DNA from: Cylicocyclus nassatus
Lineage: Eukaryota > Nematoda > Chromadorea > Rhabditida > Strongylidae
NCBI GenBank assembly: GCA_958299035.1
Contig: CATQJL010000223.1
Coordinates: 55,224,302-55,288,301, forward strand
Direction: 5' to 3'
Length of the DNA stretch: 64,000 nucleotides
Part shown: piece by piece, positions 6,215 through 63,331 of the stretch
How positions within the stretch are numbered: the stretch's first letter is position 1
Layout of the letters: each line of letters starts with the position of its first letter
Made by a program: the position numbers and the translations under genes
The notes under the pieces: generated by a model
Database searches by the model: none
The model's input: the letters and a program-made list of their open reading frames with translations, nothing else
What the model was told of the DNA's origin: nothing

Positions 6215-6714
6215 NNNNNNNNNNNNNNNNNNNNNNNNNNNNNNNNNNNNNNNNNNNNNNNNNNNNNNNNNNNNNNNNNNNNNNNNNNNNNNNNNNNNNN
6301 NNNNNNNNNNNNNNNNNNNNNNNNNNNNNNNNNNNNNNNNNNNNNNNNNNNNNNNNNNNNNNNNNNNNNNNNNNNNNNNNNNNNNNNNNNNNNNNNNNNN
6401 NNNNNNNNNNNNNNNNNNNNNNNNNNNNNNNNNNNNNNNNNNNNNNNNNNNNNNNNNNNNNNNNNNNNNNNNNNNNNNNNNNNNNNNNNNNNNNNNNNNN
6501 NNNNNNNNNNNNNNNNNNNNNNNNNNNNNNNNNNNNNNNNNNNNNNNNNNNNNNNNNNNNNNNNNNNNNNNNNNNNNNNNNNNNNNNNNNNNNNNNNNNN
6601 NNNNNNNNNNNNNNNNNNNNNNNNNNNNNNNNNNNNNNNNNNNNNNNNNNNNNNNNNNNNNNNNNNNNNNNNNNNNNNNNNNNNNNNNNNNNNNNNNNNN
6701 NNNNNNNNNNNNNN
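6215..6714. other. assembly gap, exactly 500 N
   Basis: A run of 500 N, probably a default gap of unknown size. The first bases after it (AATC) are the last four bases of a tRNA-array spacer, so the array continues into the gap and its true left end is unknown. Open frames drawn through this run are meaningless. Confidence 0.95.
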
Positions 6715-6718
6715 AATC

Positions 6719-6790
6719 GGTCCCGTGGTGTAGCGGTTAGCACTCAGGACTCTGAATCCTGCGACGTGAGTTCAAATCTCACCGGGACCT
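6719..6790 (+). tRNA. tRNA-Gln (CTG), first visible copy and array consensus
   Basis: All stems pair. The acceptor is GGTCCCG with CGGGACC and discriminator T. The D stem is GTGT/GCAC with one G-T. The anticodon stem is CAGGA/TCCTG around CTCTGAA, giving anticodon CTG at bases 34-36 (6752-6754), which reads CAG (Gln). The T stem is GTGAG/CTCAC. The internal A box TGGTGTAGCGG and B box GTTCAAATC match Pol III consensus. No CCA is encoded, as in eukaryotes. The product would be charged with glutamine for cytosolic translation. Most of the 254 full copies are identical to this one by eye. Any copy is found at its start from the array formula and ends 71 bases later (72 for k=191). Confidence 0.97.
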
Positions 6791-6794
6791 AGTC

Positions 6795-6798
6795 TTTT
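6795..6798 (+). terminator. Pol III TTTT terminator of the unit
   Basis: A T4 run lies four bases after the tRNA 3' end and is repeated in nearly every unit (AGTCTTTTGC, or AGTGTTTT and AGTATTTT variants). In about eleven units (k=29, 37, 48, 62, 74, 76, 79, 86, 88, 91, 130) it is reduced to TTT (AGTCCTTTGC), and in k=178 it is TCTCTTG. These may terminate poorly. Confidence 0.8.
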
Positions 6799-7057
6799 GC
6801 AGAAGATCTTCAATACGTCGCCATCGTCGAGGGCGGTCTGCGATAAGGATAGAATGGAAAGCAGTTATCAGCGATGTGATTATGTCCGAATCGGTCCCGT
6901 GGTGTAGCGGTTAGCACTCAGGACTCTGAATCCTGCGACGTGAGTTCAAATCTCACCGGGACCTAGTCTTTTGCAGATGGTCTCCAATACGTCGCCATCG
7001 TCGAGGGCGGTCTGCGATAAGGATAGAATGGAAAGCAGTTCTCAGCGATGTGATTAT

Positions 7058-7066
7058 GTTCGAATC
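7058..7066 (+). promoter_or_regulatory. second B-box-like motif just upstream of the tRNA
   Basis: GTTCGAATC occupies bases -9 to -1 of the unit whose tRNA starts at 7067 and matches the B-box core (GTTCRANNC) completely. It recurs at the same place before most copies. Units with TGTCCGAATC have a one-base mismatch. No matching A box is evident in the spacer, so it may be an extra TFIIIC contact or a relic of an older T arm. Function is inference. Confidence 0.4.
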
Positions 7067-7936
7067 GGTCCCGTGGTGTAGCGGTTAGCACTCAGGACTC
7101 TGAATCCTGCGACGTGAGTTCAAATCTCACCGGGACCTAGTCTTTTGCAGAAGGTCTTCAATACGTCGCCATCGTCGAGGGCGGTCTGCGATAAGGATAG
7201 AATGGAAAGCAGTTCTCAGCGATGTGATTATGTTCGAATCGGTCCCGTGGTGTAGCGGTTAGCACTCAGGACTCTGAATCCTGCGACGTGAGTTCAAATC
7301 TCACCGGGACCTAGTCTTTTGCAGAAGATCTTCAATACGTCGCCATCGTCGAGGGCGGTCTGCGATAAGGATAGAATGGAAAGCAGTTCTCAGCGATGTG
7401 ATTATGTTCGAATCGGTCCCGTGGTGTAGCGGTTAGCACTCAGGACTCTGAATCCTGCGACGTGAGTTCAAATCTCACCGGGACCTAGTCTTTTGCAGAA
7501 GGTCTCCAATACGTCGCCATCGTTGGGGGCGGTCTGCGATAAGGATAGAATGGAAAGCAGTTATCAGCGATGTGATTATGTTCGAATCGGTCCCGTGGTG
7601 TAGCGGTTAGCACTCAGGACTCTGAATCCTGCGACGTGAGTTCAAATCTCACCGGGACCTAGTCTTTTGCAGATGGTCTCCAATACGTCGCCATCGTCGA
7701 GGGCGGTCTGCGATAAGGATAGAATGGAAAGCAGTTCTCAGCGATGTGATTATGTTCGAATCGGTCCCGTGGTGTAGCGGTTAGCACTCAGGACTCTGAA
7801 TCCTGCGACGTGAGTTCAAATCTCACCGGGACCTAGTCTTTTGCAGATGGTCTCCAATACGTCGCCATCGTCGAGGGCGGTCTGCGATAAGGATAGAATG
7901 GAAAGCAGTTATCAGCGATGTGATTATGTCCGAATC

Positions 7937-10900
7937 GGTCCCGTGGTGTAGCGGTTAGCACTCAGGACTCTGAATCCTGCGACGTGAGTTCAAATCTCAC
8001 CGGGACCTAGTGTTTTGCAGAAGATCTCCAATACGTCGCCATCGTCGAGGGCGTTCTGCGATAAGGATAGAATGGAAAGCAGTTCTCAGCGATGTGATTA
8101 TGTTCGAATCGGTCCCGTGGTGTAGCGGTTAGCACTCAGGACTCTGAATCCTGCAACGTGAGTTCAAATCTCACCGGGACCTAGTCTTTTGCAGAAGATC
8201 TTCAATACGTCGCCATCGTCGAAGGCGGTCTGCGATAAGGATAGAATGGAAAGCACTTCTCAGCGATGTAATTATGTTCGAATCGGTCCCGTGGTGTAGC
8301 GGTTAGCACTCAGGACTCTGAATCCTGCGACGTGAGTTCAAATCTCACCGGGACCTAGTCTTTTGCAGAAGGTCTCCAATACGTCGCCATCGTCGAGGGC
8401 GGTCTGCGATAAGGATAGAATGGAAAGCAGTTATCAGCGATGTGATTATGTCCGAATCGGTCCCGTGGTGTAGCGGTTAGCACTCAGGACTCTGAATCCT
8501 GCGACGTGAGTTCAAATCTCACCGGGACCTAGTCTTTTGCAGATGGTCTCCAATACGTCGCCATCGTTGAGGGCGGTCTGCGATAAGGATAGAATGGAAA
8601 GCAGTTCTCAGCGATGTGATTATGTTCGAATCGGTCCCGTGGTGTAGCGGTTAGCACTCAGGACTCTGAATCCTGCGACGTGAGTTCAAATCTCACCGGG
8701 ACCTAGTCTTTTGCAGAAGGTCTCCAATACGTCGCCATCGTCGAGGGCGGTCTGCGATAAGGATAGAATGGAAAGCAGTTCTCAGCGATGTGATTATGTT
8801 CGAATCGGTCCCGTGGTGTAGCGGTTAGCACTCAGGACTCTGAATCCTGCGACGTGAGTTCAAATCTCACCGGGACCTAGTCTTTTGCAGATGGTCTTCA
8901 ATACGTCGCCATCGTTGAGGGCGGTCTGCGATAAGGATAGAATGGAAAGCAGTTCTCAGCGATGTGATTATGTCCGAATCGGTCCCGTGGTGTAGCGGTT
9001 AGCACTCAGGACTCTGAATCCTGCGACGTGAGTTCAAATCTCACCGGGACCTAGTGTTTTGCAGAAGATCTCCAATACGTCGCCATCGTCGAGGGCGTTC
9101 TGCGATAAGGATAGAATGGAAAGCAGTTCTCAGCGATGTGATTATGTTCGAATCGGTCCCGTGGTGTAGCGGTTAGCACTCAGGACTCTGAATCCTGCAA
9201 CGTGAGTTCAAATCTCACCGGGACCTAGTCTTTTGCAGAAGATCTTCAATACGTCGCCATCGTCGAAGGCGGTCTGCGATAAGGATAGAATGGAAAGCAC
9301 TTCTCAGCGATGTAATTATGTTCGAATCGGTCCCGTGGTGTAGCGGTTAGCACTCAGGACTCTGAATCCTGCGACGTGAGTTCAAATCTCACCGGGACCT
9401 AGTCTTTTGCAGAAGGTCTCCAATACGTCGCCATCGTCGAGGGCGGTCTGCGATAAGGATAGAATGGAAAGCAGTTATCAGCGATGTGATTATGTCCGAA
9501 TCGGTCCCGTGGTGTAGCGGTTAGCACTCAGGACTCTGAATCCTGCGACGTGAGTTCAAATCTCACCGGGACCTAGTCTTTTGCAGATGGTCTCCAATAC
9601 GTCGCCATCGTTGAGGGCGGTCTGCGATAAGGATAGAATGGAAAGCAGTTCTCAGCGATGTGATTATGTTCGAATCGGTCCCGTGGTGTAGCGGTTAGCA
9701 CTCAGGACTCTGAATCCTGCGACGTGAGTTCAAATCTCACCGGGACCTAGTCTTTTGCAGAAGGTCTCCAATACGTCGCCATCGTCGAGGGCGGTCTGCG
9801 ATAAGGATAGAATGGAAAGCAGTTCTCAGCGATGTGATTATGTTCGAATCGGTCCCGTGGTGTAGCGGTTAGCACTCAGGACTCTGAATCCTGCGACGTG
9901 AGTTCAAATCTCACCGGGACCTAGTCTTTTGCAGATGGTCTCCAATACGTCGCCATCGTTGAGGGCGGTCTGCGATAAGGATAGAATGGAAAGCAGTTCT
10001 CAGCGATGTGATTATGTCCGAATCGGTCCCGTGGTGTAGCGGTTAGCACTCAGGACTCTGAATCCTGCGACGTGAGTTCAAATCTCACCGGGACCTAGTG
10101 TTTTGCAGAAGATCTCCAATACGTCGCCATCGTCGAGGGCGTTCTGCGATAAGGATAGAATGGAAAGCAGTTCTCAGCGATGTGATTATGTTCGAATCGG
10201 TCCCGTGGTGTAGCGGTTAGCACTCAGGACTCTGAATCCTGCAACGTGAGTTCAAATCTCACCGGGACCTAGTCTTTTGCAGAAGATCTTCAATACGTCG
10301 CCATCGTCGAAGGCGGTCTGCGATAAGGATAGAATGGAAAGCACTTCTCAGCGATGTAATTATGTTCGAATCGGTCCCGTGGTGTAGCGGTTAGCACTCA
10401 GGACTCTGAATCCTGCGACGTGAGTTCAAATCTCACCGGGACCTAGTCTTTTGCAGAAGGTCTCCAATACGTCGCCATCGTCGAGGGCGGTCTGCGATAA
10501 GGATAGAATGGAAAGCAGTTATCAGCGATGTGATTATGTCCGAATCGGTCCCGTGGTGTAGCGGTTAGCACTCAGGACTCTGAATCCTGCGACGTGAGTT
10601 CAAATCTCACCGGGACCTAGTCTTTTGCAGATGGTCTCCAATACGTCGCCATCGTTGAGGGCGGTCTGCGATAAGGATAGAATGGAAAGCAGTTCTCAGC
10701 GATGTGATTATGTTCGAATCGGTCCCGTGGTGTAGCGGTTAGCACTCAGGACTCTGAATCCTGCGACGTGAGTTCAAATCTCACCGGGACCTAGTCTTTT
10801 GCAGAAGGTCTCCAATACGTCGCCATCGTCGAGGGCGGTCTGCGATAAGGATAGAATGGAAAGCAGTTCTCAGCGATGTGATTATGTTCGAATCGGTCCC

Positions 10901-11068
10901 GTGGTGTAGCGGTTAGCACTCAGGACTCTGAATCCTGCGACGTGAGTTCAAATCTCACCGGGACCTAGTCTTTTGCAGATGGTCTCCAATACGTCGCCAT
11001 CGTTGAGGGCGGTCTGCGATAAGGATAGAATGGAAAGCAGTTCTCAGCGATGTGATTATGTTCGAATC
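7937..11068 (+). repeat. higher-order repeat: three rounds of 6 tRNA units
   Basis: Units k=7-12, 13-18 and 19-24 repeat as 1,044-bp blocks. Markers recur at that distance. The spacer with AGTGTTTT plus GCGTTCTGCG lies near 8053, 9097 and 10141. The next tRNA (8111, 9155, 10199) has G45 to A in the variable loop, and its spacer has GAAGGCGG, GCACTTCTC and TGTAATTATG. The tRNAs otherwise keep the CTG anticodon and paired stems. Confidence 0.85.
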
Positions 11069-29700: not shown

Positions 29701-30904
29701 GCGGATAGCACTCAGGACTCTGAATCCTGCGACGTGAGTTCAAATCTCACCGGGACCTAGTCTTTTGCAGAAGGTCTCCATTACGTCGCCATCGTTGAGG
29801 GCGGTCTGCGATAAGGATAGAATGGAAAGCAGTTCTCAGCGATGTGATTATGTTCGAATCGGTCCCGTGGTGTAGCGGTTAGCACTCAGGACTCTGAATC
29901 CTGCGACGTGAGTTCAAATCTCACCGGGACCTAGTCTTTTGCAGAAGGTCTCCAATACGTCGCCATCGTCGAGGGCGGTCTGCGATAAGGATAGAATGGA
30001 AAGCAGTTCTCAGCGATGTGATTATGTTCGAATCGGTCCCGTGGTGTAGCGGTTAGCACTCAGGACTCTGAATCCTGCGACGTGAGTTCAAATCTCACCG
30101 GGACCTAGTCTTTTGCAGAAGGTCTCCAATACGTCGCCATCGTTGAGGGCGGTCTGCGATAAGGATAGAATGGAAAGCAGTTCTCAGCGATGTGATTATG
30201 TTCGAATCGGTCCCGTGGTGTAGCGGTTAGCACTCAGGACTCTGAATCCTGCGACGTGAGTTCAAATCTCACCGGGACCTAGTCTTTTGCAGAAGATCTT
30301 CAATACGTCGCCATCGTCGAGGGCGGTCTGCGATAAGGATAGAATGGAAAGCAGTTATCAGCGATGTGATTATGTCCGAATCGGTCCCGTGGTGTAGCGG
30401 TTAGCACTCAGGACTCTGAATCCTGCGACGTGAGTTCAAATCTCACCGGGACCTAGTCTTTTGCAGAAGGTCTCCAATACGTCGCCATCGTTGGGGGCGG
30501 TCTGCGATAAGGATAGAATGGAAAGCAGTTCTCAGCGATGTGATTATGTTCGAATCGGTCCCGTGGTGTAGCGGTTAGCACTCAGGACTCTGAATCCTGC
30601 GACGTGAGTTCAAATCTCACCGGGACCTAGTCTTTTGCAGATGGTCTCCAATACGTCGCCATCGTCGAGGGCGGTCTGCGATAAGGATAGAATGGAAAGC
30701 AGTTCTCAGCGATGTGATTATGTTCGAATCGGTCCCGTGGTGTAGCGGTTAGCACTCAGGACTCTGAATCCTGCGACGTGAGTTCAAATCTCACCGGGAC
30801 CTAGTCTTTTGCAGAAGGTCTCCAATACGTCGCCATCGTCGAGGGCGGTCTGCGATAAGGATAGAATGGAAAGCAGTTAACAGCGATGTGATTATGTTCG
30901 AATC

Positions 30905-33900
30905 GGTCCCGTGGTGTAGCGGTTAGCACTCAGGACTCTGAATCCTACGACGTGAGTTCAAATCTCACCGGGACCTAGTCTTTTGCAGAAGATCTTCAAT
31001 ACGTCGCCATCGTTGAGGGCGGTCTGCGATAAGGATAGAATGAAAAGCAGTTCTCAGCGATGTGATTATGTTCGAATCGGTCCCGTGGTGTAGCGGTTAG
31101 CACTCAGGACTCTGAATCCTGCGACGTGAGTTCAAATCTCGCCGGGACCTAGTCTTTTGCTGAAGGTCTCCAATACGTCGCCATCGTCGAGGGCGGTCTG
31201 CGATAAGGATAGAATGGAAAGCAGTTCTCAGCGATGTGATTATGTTCGAATCGGTCCCGTGGTGTAGCGGTTAGCACTCAGGACTCTGAATCCTGCGACG
31301 TGAGTTCAAATCTCACCGGGACCTAGTCTTTTGCAGAAGGTCTCCAATACGTCGCCATCGTCGAGGGCGGTCTGCGATAAGGATAGAATGGAAAGCAGTT
31401 CTCAGCGATGTGATTATGTTCGAATCGGTCCCGTGGTGTAGCGGTTAGCACTCAGGACTCTGAATCCTGCGACGTGAGTTCAAATCTCACCGGGACCTAG
31501 TCTTTTGCAGATGGTCTCCAATACGTCGCCATCGTTGAGGGCGGTCTGCGATAAGGATAGAATGGAAAGCAGTTCTCAGCGATGTGATTATGTTCGAATC
31601 GGTCCCGTGGTGTAGCGGTTAGCACTCAGGACTCTGAATCCTGCGACGTGAGTTCAAATCTCACCGGGACCTAGTCTTTTGCAGATGGTCTCCAATACGT
31701 CGCCATCGTTGAGGGCGGTCTGCGATAAGGATAGAATGGAAAGCAGTTCTCAGCGATGTGATTATGTTCGAATCGGTCCCGTGGTGTAGCGGTTAGCACT
31801 CAGGACTCTGAATCCTGCGACGTGAGTTCAAATCTCACCGGGACCTAGTCTTTTGCAGATGGTCTCCAATACGTCGCCATCGTTGAGGGCGGTCTGCGAT
31901 AAGGATAGAATGGAAAGCAGTTCTCAGCGATGTGATTATGTTCGAATCGGTCCCGTGGTGTAGCGGTTAGCACTCAGGACTCTGAATCCTGCGACGTGAG
32001 TTCAAATCTCACCGGGACCTAGTCTTTTGCAGAAGGTCTCCAATACGTCGCCATCGTCGAGGGCGGTATGCGATAAGGATAGAATGGAAAGCAGTTCTCA
32101 GCGATGTGATTATGTTCGAATCGGTCCCGTGGTGTAGCGGTTAGCACTCAGGACTCTGAATCCTGCGACGTGAGTTCAAATCTCACCGGGACCTAGTCTT
32201 TTGCAGAAGATCTTCAATACGTCGCCATCGTCGAGGGCGGTCTGTGATAAGGATAGAATGGAAAGCAGTTCTCAGCGATGTGATTATGTTCGAATCGGTC
32301 ACGTGGTGTAGCGGTTAGCACTCAGGACTCTGAATCCTGCGACGTGAGTTCAAATCTCACCGGGACCTAGTATTTTGCAGAAGGTCTCCAATACGTCGCC
32401 ATCGTTGAGGGCGGTCTGCGATAAGGATAGAATGGAAAGCAGTTCTCAGCGATGTGATTATGTTCGAATCGGTCCCGTGGTGTAGCGGTTAGCACTCAGG
32501 ACTCTGAATCCTGCGAAGTGAGTTCAAATCTCACCGGGACCTAGTCTTTTGCAGAAGATCTTCAATACGTCGCCATCGTCGAGGGCGGTCTGCGATAAGG
32601 ATAGAATGGAAAGCAGTTATCAGCGATGTGATTATGTCCGAACCGGTCCCGTGGTGTAGCGGTTAGCACTCAGGACTCTGAATCCTGCGACGTGAGTTCA
32701 AATCTCACCGGGACCTAGTCTTTTGCAGAAGGTCTCCAATACGTCGCCATCGTTGGGGGCGGTCTGCGATAAGGATAGAATGGAAAGCAGTTCTCAGCGA
32801 TGTGATTATGTTCGAATCGGTCCCGTGGTGTAGCGGTTAGCACTCAGGACTCTGAATCCTGCGACGTGAGTTCAAATCTCACCGGGACCTAGTCTTTTGC
32901 AGATGGTCTCCAATACGTCGCCATCGTCGAGGGCGGTCTGCGATAAGGATAGAATGGAAAGCAGTTCTCAGCGATGTGATTATGTTCGAATCGGTCCCGT
33001 GGTGTAGCGGTTAGCACTCAGGACTCTGAATCCTGCGACGTGAGTTCAAATCTCACCGGGACCTAGTCTTTTGCAGATGGTCTCCAATACGTCGCCATCG
33101 TCGAGGGCGGTCTGCGATAAGGATAGAATGGAAAGCAGTTCTCAGCGATGTGATTATGTTCGAATCGGTCCCGTGGTGTAGCGGTTAGCACTCAGGACTC
33201 TGAATCCTGCGACGTGAGTTCAAATCTCACCGGGACCTAGTCTTTTGCAGAAGGTCTTCAATACGTCGCCATCGTCGAGGGCGGTCTGCGATAAGGATAG
33301 AATGGAAAGCAGTTAACAGCGATGTGATTATGTTCGAATCGGTCCCGTGGTGTAGCGGTTAGCACTCAGGACTCTGAATCCTACGACGTGAGTTCAAATC
33401 TCACCGGGACCTAGTCTTTTGCAGAAGATCTTCAATACGTCGCCATCGTTGAGGGCGGTCTGCGATAAGGATAGAATGAAAAGCAGTTCTCAGCGATGTG
33501 ATTATGTTCGAATCGGTCCCGTGGTGTAGCGGTTAGCACTCAGGACTCTGAATCCTGCGACGTGAGTTCAAATCTCACCGGGACCTAGTCTTTTGCAGAA
33601 GGTCTCCAATACGTCGCCATCGTCGAGGGCGGTATGCGATAAGGATAGAATGGAAAGCAGTTCTCAGCGATGTGATTATGTTCGAATCGGTCCCGTGGTG
33701 TAGCGGTTAGCACTCAGGACTCTGAATCCTGCGACGTGAGTTCAAATCTCACCGGGACCTAGTCTTTTGCAGAAGATCTTCAATACGTCGCCATCGTCGA
33801 GGGCGGTCTGTGATAAGGATAGAATGGAAAGCAGTTCTCAGCGATGTGATTATGTTCGAATCGGTCACGTGGTGTAGCGGTTAGCACTCAGGACTCTGAA

Positions 33901-36900
33901 TCCTGCGACGTGAGTTCAAATCTCACCGGGACCTAGTATTTTGCAGAAGGTCTCCAATACGTCGCCATCGTTGAGGGCGGTCTGCGATAAGGATAGAATG
34001 GAAAGCAGTTCTCAGCGATGTGATTATGTTCGAATCGGTCCCGTGGTGTAGCGGTTAGCACTCAGGACTCTGAATCCTGCGACGTGAGTTCAAATCTCAC
34101 CGGGACCTAGTCTTTTGCAGAAGGTCTCCAATACGTCGCCATCGTCGAGGGCGGTATGCGATAAGGATAGAATGGAAAGCAGTTCTCAGCGATGTGATTA
34201 TGTTCGAATCGGTCCCGTGGTGTAGCGGTTAGCACTCAGGACTCTGAATCCTGCGACGTGAGTTCAAATCTCACCGGGACCTAGTCTTTTGCAGAAGATC
34301 TTCAATACGTCGCCATCGTCGAGGGCGGTCTGTGATAAGGATAGAATGGAAAGCAGTTCTCAGCGATGTGATTATGTTCGAATCGGTCACGTGGTGTAGC
34401 GGTTAGCACTCAGGACTCTGAATCCTGCGACGTGAGTTCAAATCTCACCGGGACCTAGTATTTTGCAGAAGGTCTCCAATACGTCGCCATCGTTGAGGGC
34501 GGTCTGCGATAAGGATAGAATGGAAAGCAGTTCTCAGCGATGTGATTATGTTCGAATCGGTCCCGTGGTGTAGCGGTTAGCACTCAGGACTCTGAATCCT
34601 GCGAAGTGAGTTCAAATCTCACCGGGACCTAGTCTTTTGCAGAAGATCTTCAATACGTCGCCATCGTCGAGGGCGGTCTGCGATAAGGATAGAATGGAAA
34701 GCAGTTATCAGCGATGTGATTATGTCCGAACCGGTCCCGTGGTGTAGCGGTTAGCACTCAGGACTCTGAATCCTGCGACGTGAGTTCAAATCTCACCGGG
34801 ACCTAGTCTTTTGCAGAAGGTCTCCAATACGTCGCCATCGTTGGGGGCGGTCTGCGATAAGGATAGAATGGAAAGCAGTTCTCAGCGATGTGATTATGTT
34901 CGAATCGGTCCCGTGGTGTAGCGGTTAGCACTCAGGACTCTGAATCCTGCGACGTGAGTTCAAATCTCACCGGGACCTAGTCTTTTGCAGATGGTCTCCA
35001 ATACGTCGCCATCGTCGAGGGCGGTCTGCGATAAGGATAGAATGGAAAGCAGTTCTCAGCGATGTGATTATGTTCGAATCGGTCCCGTGGTGTAGCGGTT
35101 AGCACTCAGGACTCTGAATCCTGCGACGTGAGTTCAAATCTCACCGGGACCTAGTCTTTTGCAGATGGTCTCCAATACGTCGCCATCGTCGAGGGCGGTC
35201 TGCGATAAGGATAGAATGGAAAGCAGTTCTCAGCGATGTGATTATGTTCGAATCGGTCCCGTGGTGTAGCGGTTAGCACTCAGGACTCTGAATCCTGCGA
35301 CGTGAGTTCAAATCTCACCGGGACCTAGTCTTTTGCAGAAGGTCTCCAATACGTCGCCATCGTCGAGGGCGGTCTGCGATAAGGATAGAATGGAAAGCAG
35401 TTAACAGCGATGTGATTATGTTCGAATCGGTCCCGTGGTGTAGCGGTTAGCACTCAGGACTCTGAATCCTACGACGTGAGTTCAAATCTCACCGGGACCT
35501 AGTCTTTTGCAGAAGATCTTCAATACGTCGCCATCGTTGAGGGCGGTCTGCGATAAGGATAGAATGAAAAGCAGTTCTCAGCGATGTGATTATGTTCGAA
35601 TCGGTCCCGTGGTGTAGCGGTTAGCACTCAGGACTCTGAATCCTGCGACGTGAGTTCAAATCTCGCCGGGACCTAGTCTTTTGCTGAAGGTCTCCAATAC
35701 GTCGCCATCGTCGAGGGCGGTCTGCGATAAGGATAGAATGGAAAGCAGTTCTCAGCGATGTGATTATGTTCGAATCGGTCCCGTGGTGTAGCGGTTAGCA
35801 CTCAGGACTCTGAATCCTGCGACGTGAGTTCAAATCTCACCGGGACCTAGTCTTTTGCAGAAGGTCTCCAATACGTCGCCATCGTCGAGGGCGGTCTGCG
35901 ATAAGGATAGAATGGAAAGCAGTTCTCAGCGATGTGATTATGTTCGAATCGGTCCCGTGGTGTAGCGGTTAGCACTCAGGACTCTGAATCCTGCGACGTG
36001 AGTTCAAATCTCACCGGGACCTAGTCTTTTGCAGATGGTCTCCAATACGTCGCCATCGTTGAGGGCGGTCTGCGATAAGGATAGAATGGAAAGCAGTTCT
36101 CAGCGATGTGATTATGTTCGAATCGGTCCCGTGGTGTAGCGGTTAGCACTCAGGACTCTGAATCCTGCGACGTGAGTTCAAATCTCACCGGGACCTAGTC
36201 TTTTGCAGATGGTCTCCAATACGTCGCCATCGTTGAGGGCGGTCTGCGATAAGGATAGAATGGAAAGCAGTTCTCAGCGATGTGATTATGTTCGAATCGG
36301 TCCCGTGGTGTAGCGGTTAGCACTCAGGACTCTGAATCCTGCGACGTGAGTTCAAATCTCACCGGGACCTAGTCTTTTGCAGATGGTCTCCAATACGTCG
36401 CCATCGTTGAGGGCGGTCTGCGATAAGGATAGAATGGAAAGCAGTTCTCAGCGATGTGATTATGTTCGAATCGGTCCCGTGGTGTAGCGGTTAGCACTCA
36501 GGACTCTGAATCCTGCGACGTGAGTTCAAATCTCACCGGGACCTAGTCTTTTGCAGAAGGTCTCCAATACGTCGCCATCGTCGAGGGCGGTATGCGATAA
36601 GGATAGAATGGAAAGCAGTTCTCAGCGATGTGATTATGTTCGAATCGGTCCCGTGGTGTAGCGGTTAGCACTCAGGACTCTGAATCCTGCGACGTGAGTT
36701 CAAATCTCACCGGGACCTAGTCTTTTGCAGAAGATCTTCAATACGTCGCCATCGTCGAGGGCGGTCTGTGATAAGGATAGAATGGAAAGCAGTTCTCAGC
36801 GATGTGATTATGTTCGAATCGGTCACGTGGTGTAGCGGTTAGCACTCAGGACTCTGAATCCTGCGACGTGAGTTCAAATCTCACCGGGACCTAGTATTTT

Positions 36901-37168
36901 GCAGAAGGTCTCCAATACGTCGCCATCGTTGAGGGCGGTCTGCGATAAGGATAGAATGGAAAGCAGTTCTCAGCGATGTGATTATGTTCGAATCGGTCCC
37001 GTGGTGTAGCGGTTAGCACTCAGGACTCTGAATCCTGCGAAGTGAGTTCAAATCTCACCGGGACCTAGTCTTTTGCAGAAGATCTTCAATACGTCGCCAT
37101 CGTCGAGGGCGGTCTGCGATAAGGATAGAATGGAAAGCAGTTATCAGCGATGTGATTATGTCCGAACC
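30905..37168 (+). repeat. segmental duplication of 26 tRNA units
   Basis: Markers at k=139, 140, 145, 147 and 148 recur at k=165, 166, 171, 173 and 174, a shift of 4,524 bp. They are G43A (CCTACGAC), A63G with GCTGAAGG after it, GGTATGCG in the spacer, C5A in the acceptor stem (GGTCACG), and C47A. C5A removes one acceptor pair with G68. Shorter copies of the same block occur in between (C5A also at k=156 and 159), so this segment was copied more than twice. Confidence 0.8.
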
Positions 37169-39951
37169 GGTCCCGTGGTGTAGCGGTTAGCACTCAGGAC
37201 TCTGAATCCTGCGACGTGAGTTCAAATCTCACCGGGACCTAGTCTTTTGCAGAAGGTCTCCAATACGTCGCCATCGTTGGGGGCGGTCTGCGATAAGGAT
37301 AGAATGGAAAGCAGTTCTCAGCGATGTGATTATGTTCGAATCGGTCCCGTGGTGTAGCGGTTAGCACTCAGGACTCTGAATCCTGCGACGTGAGTTCAAA
37401 TCTCACCGGGACCTAGTCTTTTGCAGATGGTCTCCAATACGTCGCCATCGTCGAGGGCGGTCTGCGATAAGGATAGAATGGAAAGCAGTTCTCAGCGATG
37501 TGATTATGTTCGAATCGGTCCCGTGGTGTAGCGGTTAGCACTCAGGACTCTGAATCCTGCGACGTGAGTTCAAATCTCACCGGGACCTAGTCTTTTGCAG
37601 AAGGTCTCCAATACGTCGCCATCGTCGAGGGCGGTCTGCGATAAGGATAGAATGGAAAGCAGTTATCAGCGATGTGATTATGTTCGAATCGGTCCCGTGG
37701 TGTAGCGGTTAGCACTCAGGACTCTGAATCCTACGACGTGAGTTCAAATCTCACCGGGACCTAGTCTCTTGCAGAAGATCTTCAATACGTCGCCATCGTT
37801 GAGGGCGGTCTGCGATAAGGATAGAATGAAAAGCAGTTCTCAGCGATGTGATTATGTTCGAATCGGTCCCGTGGTGTAGCGGTTAGCACTCAGGACTCTG
37901 AATCCTGCGACGTGAGTTCAAATCTCGCCGGGACCTAGTCTTTTGCTGAAGGTCTCCAATACGTCGCCATCGTCGAGGGCGGTCTGCGATAAGGATAGAA
38001 TGGAAAGCAGTTCTCAGCGATGTGATTATGTTCGAATCGGTCCCGTGGTGTAGCGGTTAGCACTCAGGACTCTGAATCCTACGACGTGAGTTCAAATCTC
38101 ACCGGGACCTAGTCTTTTGCAGATGGTCTCCAATACGTCGCCATCGTCGAGGGCGGTCTGCGATAAGGATGGAATGGAAAGCAGTTCTCAGCGATGTGAT
38201 TATGTTCGAATCGGTCCCGTGGTGTAGCGGTTAGCACTCAGGACTCTGAATCCTGCGACGTGAGTTCAAATCTCACCGGGACCTAGTCTTTTGCAGATGG
38301 TCTCCAATACGTCGCCATCGTCGAGGGCGGTCTGCGATAAGGATAGAATGGAAAGCAGTTATCAGGATGTGATTATGTCCGAATCGGTCCCGTGGTGTAG
38401 CGGTTAGCACTCAGGACTCTGAATCCTGCGACGTGAGTTCAATTCTCACCGGGACTTAGTCTTTTGCAGAAGGTCTCCAATACGTCGCCATCGTCGAGGG
38501 CGGTCTGCGATAAGGATAGAATGGAAAGCAGTTCTCAGCGATGTGATTATGTTCGAATCGGTCCCGTGGTGTAGCGGTTAGCACTCAGGACTCTGAATCC
38601 TGCGACGTGAGTTCAAATCTCACCGGGACCTAGTCTTTTGCAGATGGTCTCCAATACGTCGCCATCGTCGAGGGCGGTCTGCGATAAGGATAGAATGGAA
38701 AGCAGTTCTCAGCGATGTGATTATGTTCGAATCGGTCCCGTGGTGTAGCGGTTAGCACTCAGGACTCTGAATCCTGCGACGTGAGTTCAAATCTCACCGG
38801 GACCTAGTCTTTTGCAGAAGGTCTCCAATACGTCGCCATCGTTGGGGGCGGTCTGCGATAAGGATAGAATGGAAAGCAGTTCTCAGCGATGTGATTATGT
38901 TCGAATCGGTCCCGTGGTGTAGAGGTTAGCACTCAGGACTCTGAATCCTGCGACGTGAGTTCAAATCTCACCGGGACCTAGTCTTTTGCAGAAGGTCTCC
39001 AATACGTCGCCATCGTTGGGGGCGGTCTGCGATAAGGATAGAATGGAAAGCAGTTCTCAGCGATGTGATTATGTTCGAATCGGTCCCGTGGTGTAGCGGT
39101 TAGCACTCAGGACTCTGAATCCTGCGACGTGAGTTCAAATCTCGCCGGGACCTAGTCTTTTGCTGAAGGTCTCCAATACGTCGCCATCGTCGAGGGCGGT
39201 CTGCGATAAGGATGGAATGGAAAGCAGTTCTCAGCGATGTGATTATGTTCGAATCGGTCCCGTGGTGTAGCGGTTAGCACACAGGACTCTGAATCCTGCG
39301 ACGTGAGTTCAAATCTCACCGGGACCTAGTCTTTTGCAGAAGGTCTCCAATACGTCGCCATCGTCGAGGGCGGTCTGCGATAAGGATAGAATGGAAAGCA
39401 GTTCTCAGCGATGTGATTATGTTCGAATCGGTCCCGTGGTGTAGCGGTTAGCACTCAGGACTCTGAATTCTGCGACGTGAGTTCAAATCTCACCGGGACC
39501 TAGTCTTTTGCAGATGGTCTCCAATACGTCGCCATCGTTGGGGGCGGTCTGCGATAAGGATAGAATGGAAAGCAGTTCTCAGCGATGTGATTATGTTCGA
39601 ATCGGTCCCGTGGTGTAGCGGTTAGCACTCAGGACTCTGAATCCTGCGACGTGAGTTCAAATCTCACCGGGACCTAGTCTTTTGCAGAAGGTCTCCAATA
39701 CGTCGCCATCGTTGGGGGCGGTCTGCGATAAGGATAGAATGGAAAGCAGTTCTCAGCGATGTGATTATGTTCGAATCGGTCCCGTGGTGTAGCGGTTAGC
39801 ACTCAGGACTCTGAATCCTGCGACGTGAGTTCAAATCTCACCGGGACCTAGTCTTTTGCTGAAGGTCTCCAATACGTCGCCATCGTCGAGGGCGGTCTGC
39901 GATAAGGATGGAATGGAAAGCAGTTATCAGCGATGTGATTATGTTCGAATC

Positions 39952-40024
39952 GGTCCCGTGGTGTAGCGGTTAGCACTCAGGACTCTGAATCCTGCGACGT
40001 GAGTTCAAAATCTCACCGGGACCT
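39952..40024 (+). tRNA. tRNA-Gln (CTG) copy with 1-base T-loop insertion
   Basis: Copy k=191 reads GAGTTCAAAATCTCAC, giving an 8-base T loop in place of 7. The anticodon and other stems are unchanged. The T loop must dock with the D loop and forms the B box, so this copy is probably non-functional. It restores the 174-bp phase lost at the spacer deletion near 38365. Confidence 0.8.
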
Positions 40025-42214
40025 AGTCTTTTGCAGATGGTCTCCAATACGTCGCCATCGTCGAGGGCGGTCTGCGATAAGGATAGAATGGAAAGCAGTT
40101 CTCAGCGATGTGATTATGTTCGAATCGGTCCCGTGGTGTAGCGGTTAGCACACAGGACTCTGAATCCTGCGACGTGAGTTCAAATCTCACCGGGACCTAG
40201 TCTTTTGCAGAAGGTCTCCAATACGTCGCCATCGTCGAGGGCGGTCTGCGATAAGGATAGAATGGAAAGCAGTTCTCAGCGATGTGATTATGTTCGAATC
40301 GGTCCCGTGGTGTAGCGGTTAGCACTCAGGACTCTGAATCCTGCGACGTGAGTTCAAATCTCACCGGGACCTAGTCTTTTGCAGATGGTCTCCAATACGT
40401 CGCCATCGTTGGGGGCGGTCTGCGATAAGGATAGAATGGAAAGCAGTTCTCAGCGATGTGATTATGTTCGAATCGGTCCCGTGGTGTAGCGGTTAGCACT
40501 CAGGACTCTGAATCCTGCGACGTGAGTTCAAATCTCACCGGGACCTAGTCTTTTGCAGATGGTCTCCAATACGTCGCCATCGTTGGGGGCGGTCTGCGAT
40601 AAGGATAGAATGGAAAGCAGTTCTCAGCGATGTGATTATGTTCGAATCGGTCCCGTGGTGTAGCGGTTAGCACTCAGGACTCTGAATCCTGCGACGTGAG
40701 TTCAAATCTCACCGGGACCTAGTCTTTTGCAGATGGTCTCCAATACGTCGCCATCGTCGAGGGCGGTCTGCGATAAGGATAGAATGGAAAGCAGTTCTCA
40801 GCGATGTGATTATGTTCGAATCGGTCCCGTGGTGTAGCGGTTAGCACTCAGGACTCTGAATCCTGCGACGTGAGTTCAAATCTCACCGGGACCTAGTCTT
40901 TTGCAGAAGGTCTCCAATACGTCGCCATCGTCGAGGGCGGTCTGCGATAAGGATAGAATGGAAAGCAGTTCTCAGCGATGTGATTATGTTCGAATCGGTC
41001 CCGTGGTGTAGCGGTTAGCACTCAGGACTCTGAATCCTGCGACGTGAGTTCAAATCTCACCGGGACCTAGTCTTTTGCAGATGGTCTCCAATACGTCGCC
41101 ATCGTCGAGGGCGGTCTGCGATAAGGATAGAATGGAAAGCAGTTCTCAGCGATGTGATTATGTTCGAATCGGTCCCGTGGTGTAGCGGTTAGCACACAGG
41201 ACTCTGAATCCTGCGACGTGAGTTCAAATCTCACCGGGACCTAGTCTTTTGCAGAAGGTCTCCAATACGTCGCCATCGTCGAGGGCGGTCTGCGATAAGG
41301 ATAGAATGGAAAGCAGTTCTCAGCGATGTGATTATGTTCGAATCGGTCCCGTGGTGTAGCGGTTAGCACTCAGGACTCTGAATCCTGCGACGTGAGTTCA
41401 AATCTCACCGGGACCTAGTCTTTTGCAGATGGTCTCCAATACGTCGCCATCGTTGGGGGCGGTCTGCGATAAGGATAGAATGGAAAGCAGTTCTCAGCGA
41501 TGTGATTATGTTCGAATCGGTCCCGTGGTGTAGCGGTTAGCACTCAGGACTCTGAATCCTGCGACGTGAGTTCAAATCTCACCGGGACCTAGTCTTTTGC
41601 AGATGGTCTCCAATACGTCGCCATCGTTGGGGGCGGTCTGCGATAAGGATAGAATGGAAAGCAGTTCTCAGCGATGTGATTATGTTCGAATCGGTCCCGT
41701 GGTGTAGCGGTTAGCACTCAGGACTCTGAATCCTGCGACGTGAGTTCAAATCTCACCGGGACCTAGTCTTTTGCAGATGGTCTCCAATACGTCGCCATCG
41801 TCGAGGGCGGTCTGCGATAAGGATAGAATGGAAAGCAGTTCTCAGCGATGTGATTATGTTCGAATCGGTCCCGTGGTGTAGCGGTTAGCACTCAGGACTC
41901 TGAATCCTGCGACGTGAGTTCAAATCTCACCGGGACCTAGTCTTTTGCAGAAGGTCTCCAATACGTCGCCATCGTCGAGGGCGGTCTGCGATAAGGATAG
42001 AATGGAAAGCAGTTCTCAGCGATGTGATTATGTTCGAATCGGTCCCGTGGTGTAGCGGTTAGCACTCAGGACTCTGAATCCTGCGACGTGAGTTCAAATC
42101 TCACCGGGACCTAGTCTTTTGCAGAAGGTCTCCAATACGTCGCCATCGTCGAGGGCGGTCTGCGATAAGGATAGAATGGAAAGCAGTTATCAGCGATGTG
42201 ATTATGTTCGAATC

Positions 42215-46042: not shown

Positions 46043-46114
46043 GATCCCGTGGTGTAGCGGTTAGCACTCAGGACTCTTAATCCTGCGACGTGAGTTCAAA
46101 TCTCACCGGGACCT
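46043..46114 (+). tRNA. array tRNA copy with anticodon CTT (Gln to Lys-type change)
   Basis: Copy k=226 has loop CTCTTAA, so bases 34-36 (46076-46078) are CTT, which would read AAG (Lys). The body is still the glutamine tRNA. Base 2 is also changed (GATCCCG), giving an A-C mismatch in the acceptor stem. The glutaminyl-tRNA synthetase recognises the anticodon and first acceptor pairs in known systems, so charging is uncertain. It is probably a decayed copy, but if made and charged it would cause misreading. The duplicate is at 47609. Confidence 0.75.
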
Positions 46115-47608
46115 AGTCTTTTGCAGATGGTCTCCAATACGTCGCCATCGTCGAGGGCGGTCTGCGATAAGGATAGAATGGAAAGCAGTGCTCAGCGATG
46201 TGATTATGTTCGAATCGGTCCCGTGGTGTAGCGGTTAGCACTCAGGACTCTGAATCCTGCGACGTGAGTTCAAATCTCACCGGGACCTAGTCTTTTGCAG
46301 ATGGTCTCCAATACGTCGCCATCGTCGAGAGCGGTCTGCGATAAGGATAGAATGGAAAGCAGTTCTCAGCGATGTGATTATGTTCGAATCGGTCCCGTGG
46401 TGTAGCGGTTAGCACTCAGGACTCTGAATCCTGCGACGTGAGTTCAAATCTCACCGGGACCTAGTCTTTTGCAGAAGGTCTCCAATACGTCGCCATCGTC
46501 GAGGGCGGTCTGCGATAAGGATAGACTGGAAAGCAGTTCTCAGCGATGTGATTATGTTCGAATCGGTCCCGTGGTGTAGCGGTTAGCACTCAGGACTCTG
46601 AATCCTGCGACGTGAGTTCAAATCTCACCGGGACCTAGTCTTTTGCAGAAGGTCTCCAATACGTCGCCATCGTTGGGGGCGGTCTGCGATAAGGATAGAA
46701 TGGAAAGCAGTTCTCAGCGATGTGATTATGTTCGAATCGGTCCCGTGGTGTAGCGGTTAGCACTCAGGACTCTGAGTCCTGCGACGTGAGTTCAAATCTC
46801 ACCGGGACCTAGTCTTTTGCAGATGGTCTCCAATACGTCGCCATCGTCGAGGGCGGTCTGCGATAAGGATAGAATGGAAAGCAGTGCTCAGCGATGTGAT
46901 TATGTTCGAATCGGTCCCGTGGTGTAGCGGTTAGCACTCAGGACTCTGAATCCTGCGACGTGAGTTCAAATCTCACCGGGACCTAGTCTTTTGCAGATGG
47001 TCTCCAATACGTCGCCATCGTCGAGGGCGGTCTGCGATAAGGATAGAATGGAAAGCAGTGCTCAGCGATGTGATTATGTTCGAATCGGTCCCGTGGTGTA
47101 GCGGTTAGCACTCAGGACTCTGAATCCTGCGACGTGAGTTCAAATCTCACCGGGACCTAGTCTTTTGCAGATGGTCTCCAATACGTCGCCATCGTCGAGG
47201 GCGGTCTGCGATAAGGATAGAATGGAAAGCAGTTCTCAGCGATGTGATTATGTTCGAATCGGTCCCGTGGTGTAGCGGTTAGCACTCAGGACTCTGAATC
47301 CTGCGACGTGAGTTCAAATCTCACCGGGACCTAGTCTTTTGCAGAAAGTCTCCAATACGTCGCCATCGTCGAGGGCGGTCTGCGATAAGGATAGAATGGA
47401 AAGCAGTTCTCAGCGATGTGATTATGTTCGAATCGGTCCCGTGGTGTAGCGGTTAGCACTCAGGACTCTGAATCCTGCGACGTGAGTTCAAATCTCACCG
47501 GGACCTAGTCTTTTGCAGATGGTCTCCAATACGTCGCCATCGTCGAGGGCGGTCTGCGATAAGGATAGAATGGAAAGCAGTTCTCAGCGATGTGATTATG
47601 TTCGAATC

Positions 47609-47680
47609 GATCCCGTGGTGTAGCGGTTAGCACTCAGGACTCTTAATCCTGCGACGTGAGTTCAAATCTCACCGGGACCT
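47609..47680 (+). tRNA. second array tRNA copy with anticodon CTT
   Basis: Copy k=235 carries the same two changes as the copy at 46043: G2 to A and anticodon CTT at 47642-47644. It lies exactly nine units downstream, so the pair arose by block duplication, not by independent mutation. Confidence 0.75.
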
Positions 47681-50600
47681 AGTCTTTTGCAGATGGTCTC
47701 CAATACGTCGCCATCGTCGAGGGCGGTCTGCGATAAGGATAGAATGGAAAGCAGTGCTCAGCGATGTGATTATGTTCGAATCGGTCCCGTGGTGTAGCGG
47801 TTAGCACTCAGGACTCTGAATCCTGCGACGTGAGTTCAAATCTCACCGGGACCTAGTCTTTTGCAGATGGTCTCCAATACGTCGCCATCGTCGAGGGCGG
47901 TCTGCGATAAGGATAGAATGGAAAGCAGTTCTCAGCGATGTGATTATGTTCGAATCGGTCCCGTGGTGTAGCGGTTAGCACTCAGGACTCTGAATCCTGC
48001 GACGTGAGTTCAAATCTCACCGGGACCTAGTCTTTTGCAGATGGTCTCCAATACGTCGCCATCGTCGAGGGCGGTCTGCGATAAGGATAGAATGGAAAGC
48101 AGTTCTCAGCGATGTGATTATGTTCGAATCGGTCCCGTGGTGTAGCGGTTAGCACTCAGGACTCTGAATCCTGCGACGTGAGTTCAAATCTCACCGGGAC
48201 CTAGTCTTTTGCAGAAAGTCTCCAATACGTCGCCATCGTCGAGGGCGGTCTGCGATAAGGATAGAATGGAAAGCAGTTCTCAGCGATGTGATTATGTTCG
48301 AATCGGTCCCGTGGTGTAGCGGTTAGCACTCAGGACTCTGAATCCTGCGACGTGAGTTCAAATCTCACCGGGACCTAGTCTTTTGCAGATGGTCTCCAAT
48401 ACGTCGCCATCGTCGAGGGCGGTCTGCGATAAGGATAGAATGGAAAGCAGTTCTCAGCGATGTGATTATGTTCGAATCGGTCCCGTGGTGTAGCGGTTAG
48501 CACTCAGGACTCTGAATCCTGCGACGTGAGTTCAAATCTCACCGGGACCTAGTCTTTTGCAGAAGGTCTCCAATACGTCGCCATCGTCGAGGGCGGTCTG
48601 CGATAAGGATAGAATGGAAAGCAGTTCTCAGCGATGTGATTATGTTCGAATCGGTCCCGTGGTGTAGCGGTTAGCACTCAGGACTCTGAATCCTGCGACG
48701 TGAGTTCAAATCTCACCGGGACCTAGTCTTTTGCAGAAGATCTTCAATACGTCGCCATCGTCGAGGGCGGTCTGCGATAAGGATAGAATGGAAAGCAGTT
48801 CTCAGCGATGTGATTATGTTCGAATCGGTCCCGTGGTGTAGCGGTTAGCACTCAGGACTCTGAATCCTGCGACGTGAGTTCAAATCTCACCGGGACCTAG
48901 TCTTTTGCAGAAGGTCTCCAATACGTCGCCATCGTCGAGGGCGGTCTGCGATAAGGATAGAATGGAAAGCAGTTCTCAGCGATGTGATTATGTTCGAATC
49001 GGTCCCGTGGTGTAGCGGTTAGCACTCAGGACTCTGAATCCTGCGACGTGAGTTCAAATCTCACCGGGACCTAGTCTTTTGCAGATGGTCTCCAATACGT
49101 CGCCATCGTCGAGGGCGGTCTGCGATAAGGATAGAATGGAAAGCAGTTCTCAGCGATGTGATTATGTTCGAATCGGTCCCGTGGTGTAGCGGTTAGCACT
49201 CAGGACTCTGAATCCTGCGACGTGAGCTCAAATCTCACCGGGACCTAGTCTTTTGCAGAAGGTCTCCAATACGTCGCCATCGTTGGGGGCGGTCTGCGAT
49301 AAGGATAGAATGGAAAGCAGTTCTCAGCGATGTGATTATGTTCGAATCGGTCCCGTGGTGTAGCGGTTAGCACTCAGGACTCTGAGTCCTGCGACGTGAG
49401 TTCAAATCTCACCGGGACCTAGTCTTTTGCAGAAGTTCTCCAATACGTCGCCATCGTTGGGGGCGGTCTGCGATAAGGATAGAATGGAAAGCAGTTCTCA
49501 GCAATGTGATTATGTTCGAATCGGTCCCGTGGTGTAGCGGTTAGCACTCAGGACTCTGAATCCTGCGACGTGAGCTCAAATCTCACCGGGACCTAGTCTT
49601 TTGCAGATGGTCTCCAATACGTCGCCATCGTCGAGGGCGGTCTGCGATAAGGATAGAATGGAAAGCAGTGCTCAGCGATGTGATTATGTTCGAATCGGTC
49701 CCGTGGTGTAGCGGTTAGCACTCAGGACTCTGAATCCTGCGACGTGAGTTCAAATCTCACCGGGACCTAGTCTTTTGCAGAAGGTCTCCAATACGTCGCC
49801 ATCGTCGAGGGCGGTCTGCGATAAGAATAGAATGGAAAGCAGTTCTCAGCGATGTGATTATGTTCGAATCGGTCCCGTGGTGTAGCGGTTAGCACTCAGG
49901 ACTCTGAATCCTGCGACGTGAGTTCAAATCTCACCGGGACCTAGTCTTTTGCAGAAGATCTTCAATACGTCGCCATCGTCGAGGGCGGTCTGCGATAAGG
50001 ATAGAATGGAAAGCAGTTCTCAGCGATGTGATTATGTTCGAATCGGTCCCGTGGTGTAGCGGTTAGCACTCAGGACTCTGAATCCTGCGACGTGAGTTCA
50101 AATCTCACCGGGACCTAGTCTTTTGCAGATGGTCTCCAATACGTCGCCATCGTCGAGGGCGGTCTGCGATAAGGATAGAATGGAAAGCAGTTCTCAGCGA
50201 TGTGATTATGTTCGAATCGGTCCCGTGGTGTAGCGGTTAGCACTCAGGACTCTGAATCCTGCGACGTGAGTTCAAATCTCACCGGGACCTAGTCTTTTGC
50301 AGAAGGTCTCCAATACGTCGCCATCGTCGAGGGCGGTCTGCGATAAGGATAGAATGGAAAGCAGTTCTCAGCGATGTGATTATGTTCGAATCGGTCCCGT
50401 GGTGTAGCGGTTAGCACTCAGGACTCTGAATCCTGCGACGTGAGTTCAAATCTCACCGGGACCTAGTCTTTTGCAGAAGATCTTCAATACGTCGCCATCG
50501 TCGAGGGCGGTCTGCGATAAGGATAGAATGGAAAGCAGTTCTCAGCGATGTGATTATGTTCGAATCGGTCCCGTGGTGTAGCGGTTAGCACTCAGGACTC

Positions 50601-50914
50601 TGAATCCTGCGACGTGAGTTCAAATCTCACCGGGACCTAGTCTTTTGCAGATGGTCTCCAATACGTCGCCATCGTCGAGGGCGGTCTGCGATAAGGATAG
50701 AATGGAAAGCAGTTCTCAGCGATGTGATTATGTTCGAATCGGTCCCGTGGTGTAGCGGTTAGCACTCAGGACTCTGAATCCTGCGACGTGAGTTCAAATC
50801 TCACCGGGACCTAGTCTTTTGCAGAAGGTCTCCAATACGTCGCCATCGTCGAGGGCGGTCTGCGATAAGGATAGAATGGAAAGCAGTTCTCAGCGATGTG
50901 ATTATGTTCGAATC

Positions 50915-50963
50915 GGTCCCGTGGTGTAGCGGTTAGCACTCAGGACTCTGAATCCTGCGACGT
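50915..50963 (+). pseudogene. truncated last tRNA-Gln copy of the array
   Basis: Copy k=254 is intact through the anticodon stem (49 bases) and then breaks at GCGACGT before the T arm. It lacks the B box and terminator. The sequence continues into an inverted spacer (TCTCGACGGTGGCG), so this is the rearrangement point at the array's right edge. Confidence 0.9.
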
Positions 50964-50965
50964 TC

Positions 50966-63225: not shown

Positions 63226-63331
63226 GTGCATTTCGAGGTGTGTGGAATTTGTTCTTACATAAAGGTGCAAATGACACTTTTGGGCTTACATAAGTACAAG
63301 AAACGCATAGCCATAAATCGCAATGACTCAC

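What the first reader, a model, noticed from the sequence alone, without database searches (positions are those of the whole stretch)
6715..50963. Single 44-kb array of 255 tRNA-Gln(CUG) genes
The sequence shows 254 full and one truncated head-to-tail copies of a 174-bp unit, each with a foldable tRNA, A and B boxes and (mostly) a TTTT terminator. tRNA genes in tandem arrays are known, for example in Entamoeba and Xenopus, but one isoacceptor amplified this far on one strand is remarkable. Possibilities are a real tRNA gene bank for CAG decoding, a tRNA-derived satellite with a structural role (TFIIIC-bound boundary, heterochromatin), or selfish expansion. Since most copies stay consensus in the tRNA while common variants sit in the spacer, either selection or homogenisation is acting.
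Basis: partly seen in the sequence, partly recalled or inferred. Interest (0 to 1): 0.92.

Follow-up and report, generated by a model that had tools for sequence, protein, structure and literature searches.

The report
Giant tandem arrays of glutamine tRNA genes
A roundworm chromosome carries hundreds of head-to-tail copies of one glutamine tRNA gene in two giant neighbouring arrays; such arrays are known from a related worm, but here the tRNA part stayed identical between the arrays while the rest drifted, which suggests that they still work as genes.

Summary
The array is real as assembled: 174-bp units, 255 copies, 6715-50963, with 254 Rfam matches above threshold. It is neither single nor complete. 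Its left end is a 500-N assembly gap. A second, larger tRNA-Gln(CUG) array lies on the same scaffold at 54.921-55.088 Mb: 1,062 units, 629 full-length and 433 half-units lacking T arm, B box and terminator. The two arrays and their inverted edge copies hold all 585 exact copies of this tRNA in the assembly. Other tRNA arrays exist: Lys(UUU) (990 matches on one strand) and three Arg(UCG)/Cys(GCA) clusters. The host is a strongylid nematode.

Between the arrays the tRNA consensus differs at 0 of 72 positions, the spacer at 22 of 102. Unit order shows block duplication. Best reading: an ordinary Pol III gene, amplified and homogenised by unequal exchange, with selection holding the tRNA consensus. 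Expression is untested. Similar arrays are published for Nippostrongylus brasiliensis (PMC5765664), so this is a new member of a known kind. One T-stem base pair separates the array tRNA from the dispersed genes, so expression is testable.

The parts
6215..6714 (.). 500-N scaffold gap; the array abuts it, so its left end is not assembled
   Evidence: N run of exactly 500
6715..50963 (+). Array 1: 255 head-to-tail units of 174 bp, each a 72-nt tRNA-Gln(CUG) gene plus a 102-bp spacer; the last copy is truncated
   Evidence: TRF, anchor scan, Rfam 254 matches, ARAGORN
6719..6790 (+). First tRNA gene, consensus sequence; cloverleaf is the minimum-energy fold
   Evidence: ARAGORN, strand folding
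38212..40125 (+). Stretch between the 173-bp unit (1-bp deletion in the spacer, 38212) and the 175-bp unit (1-bp insertion in the tRNA T loop, 39951) that puts the register back
46043..46114 (+). tRNA-Gln body with anticodon CTT (Lys anticodon); the same variant recurs at 47609-47680
   Evidence: ARAGORN and unit listing
30495..37601 (+). Two copies of an exact 2,583-bp repeat (starts 30495 and 35019), the longest block duplication in array 1
   Evidence: runs of unit types against shuffles
50965..51060 (-). Inverted, damaged partial unit directly after the array (tRNA with deletion and substitutions)
52779..53061 (-). Inverted, damaged units; the complete tRNA body here has substitutions and a deletion and is not called by ARAGORN
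54036..54807 (.). Right-flank stretch that is also found right of array 2 (C223:55,090,705-55,091,510); 64 substitutions in 762 aligned bases
   Evidence: not tested whether it is a dispersed repeat

Best explanation
This is one of two related giant tandem arrays of tRNA-Gln(CUG) genes on one scaffold of a strongylid nematode. Shown: the repeat unit is a complete tRNA gene with A box, B box and a T-run; blocks of several units were duplicated locally; both arrays carry inverted units and a shared stretch at their right edges; the tRNA consensus is identical in both arrays while spacer and flank have diverged. Inferred: one Pol III tRNA gene was duplicated head to tail; the array grew and is homogenised by unequal exchange or conversion; the locus was duplicated; and purifying selection against loss of tRNA function keeps the majority sequence, although single copies mutate freely. 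On that reading a good part of the copies are transcribed, so the arrays are a working tRNA gene bank with satellite-like dynamics.
For: Consensus differences between arrays: tRNA 0/72, spacer 22/102, Fisher 3.1e-6; set against segregating sites 0:29 vs 22:30 (p 1.1e-5) and 0:40 vs 22:55 (p 3.5e-5). Shared flank 64/762 substitutions against 0/72 in the tRNA, p 0.004. tRNA diversity 0.0079 vs 0.0269 outside it in array 1 (region offset by one base). No tRNA variant reaches 5% in array 1 (0/29 vs 7/30 spacer sites, p 0.011). B-box core unchanged in 243/252 and 576/618, A box in 247/252 and 571/618 units; T-run in 242/255 and 624/629. No broken stem pair in 216/252 and 470/618 units. Arrays carry T50-A64 where the dispersed genes carry G50-C64, a pair-preserving change, so they were not overwritten by the dispersed genes. 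Block duplications: runs of 14 and 15 unit types against at most 5 in 200 shuffles.
Against: No expression data. Within an array, variable sites are as frequent in the tRNA as outside it (28/72 vs 31/102, p 0.26), and stem variants keep pairing no more often than chance predicts (4/17 and 9/32, expected 0.167, p 0.51 and 0.09), so single copies look unconstrained. The frequency-spectrum test is not significant in array 2 (3/40 vs 12/55, p 0.087). 433 of 1,062 units in array 2 are half-units without B box or terminator, and their 5' tRNA part is nearly as uniform as in full units (348/433 vs 530/629), so homogenisation alone explains uniformity within an array. The between-array test rests on one pair of arrays.
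Confidence: 0.62

Rival explanations
1. A tRNA-derived satellite: the arrays grow and persist through recombination alone. The tRNA is inherited cargo, mostly silent, and its sameness comes from homogenisation or short-tract conversion.
For: 433 half-units are spread through array 2; variation inside an array ignores tRNA structure; block duplications; the Arg/Cys arrays are more worn, with 2 of 50 Cys matches exact, one of them a lone gene.
Against: 0/72 against 22/102 between arrays would need conversion tracts confined to the tRNA; the dispersed genes are not the donor, because they carry another T-stem pair. Copies outside array 1 are damaged in the tRNA.
Confidence: 0.25
2. A chromatin element: the many TFIIIC-binding B boxes act as a boundary, a clustering site or a chromosome-organising block, with or without tRNA output.
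For: B-box core unchanged in 243/252 and 576/618 full units. A human tRNA tandem repeat is proposed as a boundary element (PMC4041453, passages seen).
Against: Selection for TFIIIC binding alone would not keep the acceptor stem, anticodon and T-run. No chromatin data.
Confidence: 0.08
3. An assembly artefact: a short real array expanded or mis-joined by the assembler.
For: Array 1 begins exactly at a 500-N gap; exact repeats up to 2,583 and 2,522 bp can mislead assemblers; no reads could be examined.
Against: 73 distinct unit types among 254 units and 258 among 1,062; two arrays with different spacers; no N in the 200 kb that holds array 2; tRNA repeats in long-read contigs of another strongylid (PMC5765664). 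Exact copy number stays uncertain.
Confidence: 0.05

Closest known systems
tRNA VeCTRs (very long complex tandem repeats) of Nippostrongylus brasiliensis, a strongylid (PMC5765664; abstract and passages seen)
   Same: Single-tRNA units of about 150-200 bp in head-to-tail arrays of about a hundred copies or more; same nematode group
   Different: There about 150 tRNA-Trp and 90 tRNA-Ser copies; here tRNA-Gln with 255 and 1,062 units, half-units in one array, and a second array for comparison
Hydractinia RNA-gene arrays (PMC11067881; section 14 read)
   Same: Tens to hundreds of near-identical tRNA copies in even tandem arrays
   Different: [quoted passage not shown] here 102-nt spacers and, as far as seen, few isotypes
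Entamoeba tRNA arrays (PMC2652664; passages seen)
   Same: tRNA genes as tandem array units kept alike by concerted evolution
   Different: There nearly all tRNA genes are in arrays, 25 unit types with up to 5 tRNAs; here free-standing dispersed tRNA-Gln genes remain
Human tRNA repeat at 1q23.3 (PMC4041453; passages seen)
   Same: A tRNA-bearing tandem repeat on a chromosome
   Different: 7.3-kb units, 9-43 copies
Oocyte-specific tandem tRNA genes of Xenopus (PMC11500080; passages seen) and the tRNA-rich Chr4R Region-2 of zebrafish (PMC11075544; passages seen)
   Same: Large tandem or clustered tRNA sets besides tRNA genes elsewhere
   Different: Stage-specific use is reported for Xenopus and only proposed for zebrafish; here it is untested

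Membership tests
Strongylid tRNA VeCTR (PMC5765664) | Very long tandem repeat whose unit is one tRNA gene plus a spacer | tested here: met
   TRF, ARAGORN, Rfam
Strongylid tRNA VeCTR (PMC5765664) | Host is a strongylid nematode | tested here: met
   TBP 94% to Ancylostoma ceylanicum, 86% to Strongylus vulgaris; 582 exact SL1 copies
Strongylid tRNA VeCTR (PMC5765664) | Same amplified isotype (Trp or Ser) | tested here: inconclusive
   The array is Gln. A recalled tRNA-Trp pattern gave 0 matches, not even a dispersed gene, so it says nothing; Ser not tested
Strongylid tRNA VeCTR (PMC5765664) | Array seen in single long reads | not testable with these tools
   No reads available
Entamoeba-type tRNA arrays | Nearly all tRNA genes of the genome in arrays | tested here: inconclusive
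   Free-standing Gln(CUG) genes exist; no full census (one search scored 63 of 54,414 candidates)
[quoted passage not shown]
   Spacer 102 nt in the window array
tRNA-derived SINE | Dispersed retroposed copies with a tRNA-related head and a tail | tested here: not met
   All 585 exact copies lie in the two arrays and their inverted edge copies
Oocyte-type tRNA arrays | Expression confined to oocytes or early embryos | not testable with these tools
   No expression data

The most novel reading that the evidence does not exclude
The arrays are a second, separately regulated tRNA set: array-type Gln and Lys isodecoders are made in bulk in one setting (for example oocytes or early embryos of a very fecund worm), while the dispersed isodecoders serve the rest of the body. 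Selection then acts on an array as a population of genes that tolerates a large minority of dead units, and different strongylids amplify different tRNAs.
Probability: 0.15. Interest if true: 0.85.

Novelty: new member of a known kind. Interest (0 to 1): 0.56.

Why it matters
It turns a curiosity into a test case. Two related arrays with a fixed tRNA and a drifting spacer show how selection can act on a gene that exists in hundreds of copies. The base pair that separates the array tRNA from the dispersed genes lets ordinary tRNA sequencing tell whether giant tRNA arrays are used, when and how much. It also warns annotators: tRNA gene counts in such genomes can be dominated by a few arrays and need not mirror decoding supply.

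Tried and rejected
Organism: a copepod (Eurytemora) was considered from genome size and the number of large scaffolds and dropped: published GC is 33% (PMC11706791, PMC12639140, passages seen) against 43-44% GC in the window flanks, with CpG o/e 0.92 and 0.97. PMC11801625 and PMC10682056 were searched for 'tRNA' with no occurrence.

Other arrays: the Rfam scan of the genome scored only 63 of 54,414 candidates and did not list the Gln arrays, so the census is incomplete. Val, Gly and Thr tRNAs on small contigs C25, C304 and C62 were dropped as probable bacterial contigs (encoded CCA in Gly and Thr; Val by look; inference).

Retroposed mature tRNA as a sign of expression: L039 has array-type T50-A64, one further change, and a 3' CCA, but in L045 the same CCA belongs to an inverted repeat around the tRNA, so it was not used.

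A recalled tRNA-Trp pattern gave 0 matches and is uninformative. A first pairing test used a wrong D stem and was redone; only A-box, B-box and anticodon counts are taken. In one search the tRNA region was offset by one base; one search uses the right one.
Full report
OBSERVATION. TRF reports 6715-50963, period 174, 254.3 copies, 98% matches. An anchor scan gives 255 tRNA starts; of 254 spacings 252 are 174 bp, one 173 and one 175. Rfam gives 254 matches at or above the gathering score; the 150 listed are all tRNA, most at 67.4 bits. ARAGORN Gln(CTG) and two CTT copies with an otherwise Gln-like body. The cloverleaf is the minimum-energy fold of the consensus. TTTT follows 242 of 255 copies; of the other 13, 11 have TTT, one has a broken run and one is the truncated last unit. 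The left boundary is a 500-N gap, so the array is a minimum.

HOST. The window lies in a 514.7-Mb assembly of 369 contigs, on C223 (91.7 Mb); three other scaffolds seen are 107.7, 89.1 and 83.5 Mb. A TATA-binding protein gene about 19 kb left of array 2 encodes a protein 94% identical to one of Ancylostoma ceylanicum and 86% to one of Strongylus vulgaris. The SL1 sequence (recalled) occurs 582 times exactly, partly in 680-bp repeats. The host is therefore a strongylid nematode; the species was not established.

THE WIDER LOCUS. A DNA search with one unit found matches of 86-89% identity at 54.92-55.09 Mb on the same scaffold. In the fetched 54.90-55.10 Mb (no N), array 2 runs from 54,921,249 to 55,087,937 with 1,062 units: 629 full (618 of them 172 or 174 bp) and 433 short (410 of them 134-136 bp). 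The common short unit lacks 38 bp, which removes the T arm with the B box and the terminator (consensus sequences). ARAGORN finds 633 tRNAs in that 200 kb: 626 CTG and 2 TTG on +, 5 CTG on -. The exact 71-nt array tRNA occurs 583 times forward and twice reverse in the whole assembly: 188 in the window array, 395 in array 2 and the 2 reverse ones among the inverted units right of array 2. Copies with mismatches elsewhere are not excluded by this.

OTHER tRNAs. tRNA-Lys(UUU) within 3 mismatches: 995 places, 990 of them on the minus strand; only 100 were listed, and most of these lie at C305 from 73.767 Mb on, about 202 bp apart. Ten such genes were read at 73.815-73.817 Mb, and tRNA matches of the same length reach 73.946 Mb. 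Arg(UCG) over 60 nt within 3 mismatches: 194, the 100 listed being exact; Cys(GCA): 50, of which 2 exact, one of them a lone gene. Arg and Cys lie in divergent units of about 438 bp near 25.4, 45.1 and 48.7-48.8 Mb of C223. Large tRNA arrays are thus a feature of this genome, and they differ in how intact they are.

SELECTION OR HOMOGENISATION. With 252 and 629 full units aligned, consensus differences between arrays are 0 of 72 in the tRNA and 22 of 102 outside it (Fisher 3.1e-6). Set against segregating sites this is 0:29 vs 22:30 for array 1 (p 1.1e-5) and 0:40 vs 22:55 for array 2 (p 3.5e-5). Variants at 5% or more: 0 of 29 tRNA vs 7 of 30 spacer sites in array 1 (p 0.011), 3 of 40 vs 12 of 55 in array 2 (p 0.087, not significant). 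A flank shared by both arrays differs by 64 substitutions in 762 aligned bases (against 0/72, p 0.004), and inverted copies right of array 1 have deletions and substitutions in the tRNA; in contrast 5 inverted copies right of array 2 are still called as tRNAs. Against selection on single copies: variable sites are as frequent in the tRNA as outside it (28/72 vs 31/102, p 0.26; region offset by one base there), and stem variants keep pairing about as often as chance predicts (4/17 and 9/32, expected 0.167). The 5' tRNA part of dead short units is nearly as uniform as that of full units (348/433 vs 530/629). So homogenisation alone explains uniformity within an array, while identity between arrays needs selection, or conversion in very short tracts confined to the tRNA.

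GROWTH. Coding each unit by its sequence shows runs of unit types repeated in order; the longest repeated run is 14 units in array 1 and 15 in array 2, against at most 5 in 200 shuffles each. Longest exact repeats are 2,583 and 2,522 bp. This is what unequal exchange or block duplication leaves.

ISODECODERS. The G50-C64 form (standard numbering, my count) occurs exactly 8 times, on three scaffolds. Of nine off-array copies fetched, six (L038, L040-L044) are free-standing G50-C64 genes, each with a T-run of at least four; L045, also one of the 8, sits in an inverted repeat; L039 and L046 are variant copies. The eighth exact copy (C1:102,051,270) was not read. The arrays carry T50-A64. For Lys, four listed dispersed copies differ from the array type at two anticodon-stem positions; this change is not pair-preserving (G-C against A-G), and one lone copy at C305:73,655,448 has the array type. 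Array and dispersed tRNAs can therefore mostly be told apart by sequencing.

MECHANISM. Most likely a Pol III tRNA gene was amplified, the array was homogenised by exchange, the locus was duplicated, and selection keeps the majority tRNA. Shown: anatomy, duplication pattern, tRNA identity between arrays. Inferred: transcription, selection as the cause, order of events. Not shown: any role in CAG decoding, development or chromatin.

LITERATURE. The searches listed no paper that I recognised as describing this array; the library holds open-licence papers only. The closest is N. [quoted passage not shown] Further precedents: Hydractinia (PMC11067881, section 14), Entamoeba (PMC2652664, passages), human 1q23.3 (PMC4041453, passages), plants with 27-28 copies (PMC11700998, passages), Xenopus (PMC11500080, passages) and zebrafish (PMC11075544, passages). 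A 2010 survey knew such tandem repeats only from Entamoeba (PMC2888827, passages).

VERDICT. Real as assembled, larger than reported, not single, and a new member of a known kind. The value lies in the between-array test and in the diagnostic base pair.

Noticed in passing
L045 (C1 near 61,045,000); related flanks in L046 and partly L039: A complete tRNA-Gln(CUG) sits in the middle of a perfect inverted repeat with arms of at least 48 bp; L046 shares the left flank and L039 a few right-flank bases. A tRNA-bearing foldback element, unexplained; a genome count was asked for and never answered.
   Followed up: partly
C305 from 73,766,541; L029: Array of tRNA-Lys(UUU) genes, about 202-bp units, minus strand; 990 minus-strand matches within 3 mismatches.
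   Followed up: partly
C223 near 25.41, 45.11 and 48.74 Mb; L030-L032, L037: Three arrays of divergently oriented tRNA-Arg(UCG)/tRNA-Cys(GCA) units of about 438 bp, with many mutated Cys copies.
   Followed up: partly
L009 762-2678 (C223:54,900,762-54,902,678): TATA-binding protein gene about 19 kb left of array 2. TBP is also part of the Pol III factor TFIIIB (recalled); the nearness may be chance.
   Followed up: partly
window 46043-46114 and 47609-47680: Two array copies share an anticodon change to CTT (Lys) and a second substitution in the acceptor stem; probably one mutant copied.
   Followed up: no
C1:30,138,576-30,172,829 and 31,608,644 onward: SL1 spliced-leader copies in two tandem arrays of about 680-bp units, in opposite orientation.
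   Followed up: no
window 3257-3481, 54998-55773, 59984-60237: Related short tandem repeats of about 97-120 bp with ATCGAT motifs on both sides of the array; similar sequence lies just left of array 2.
   Followed up: no
contigs C25, C304, C62 (L033, L034, L036): tRNAs that look bacterial, Gly and Thr with encoded CCA, on small contigs; probable contaminants of the assembly.
   Followed up: no
window 63218-63553 (minus): Fragment of a C-type lectin gene (Pfam PF00059, E 5e-5).
   Followed up: no
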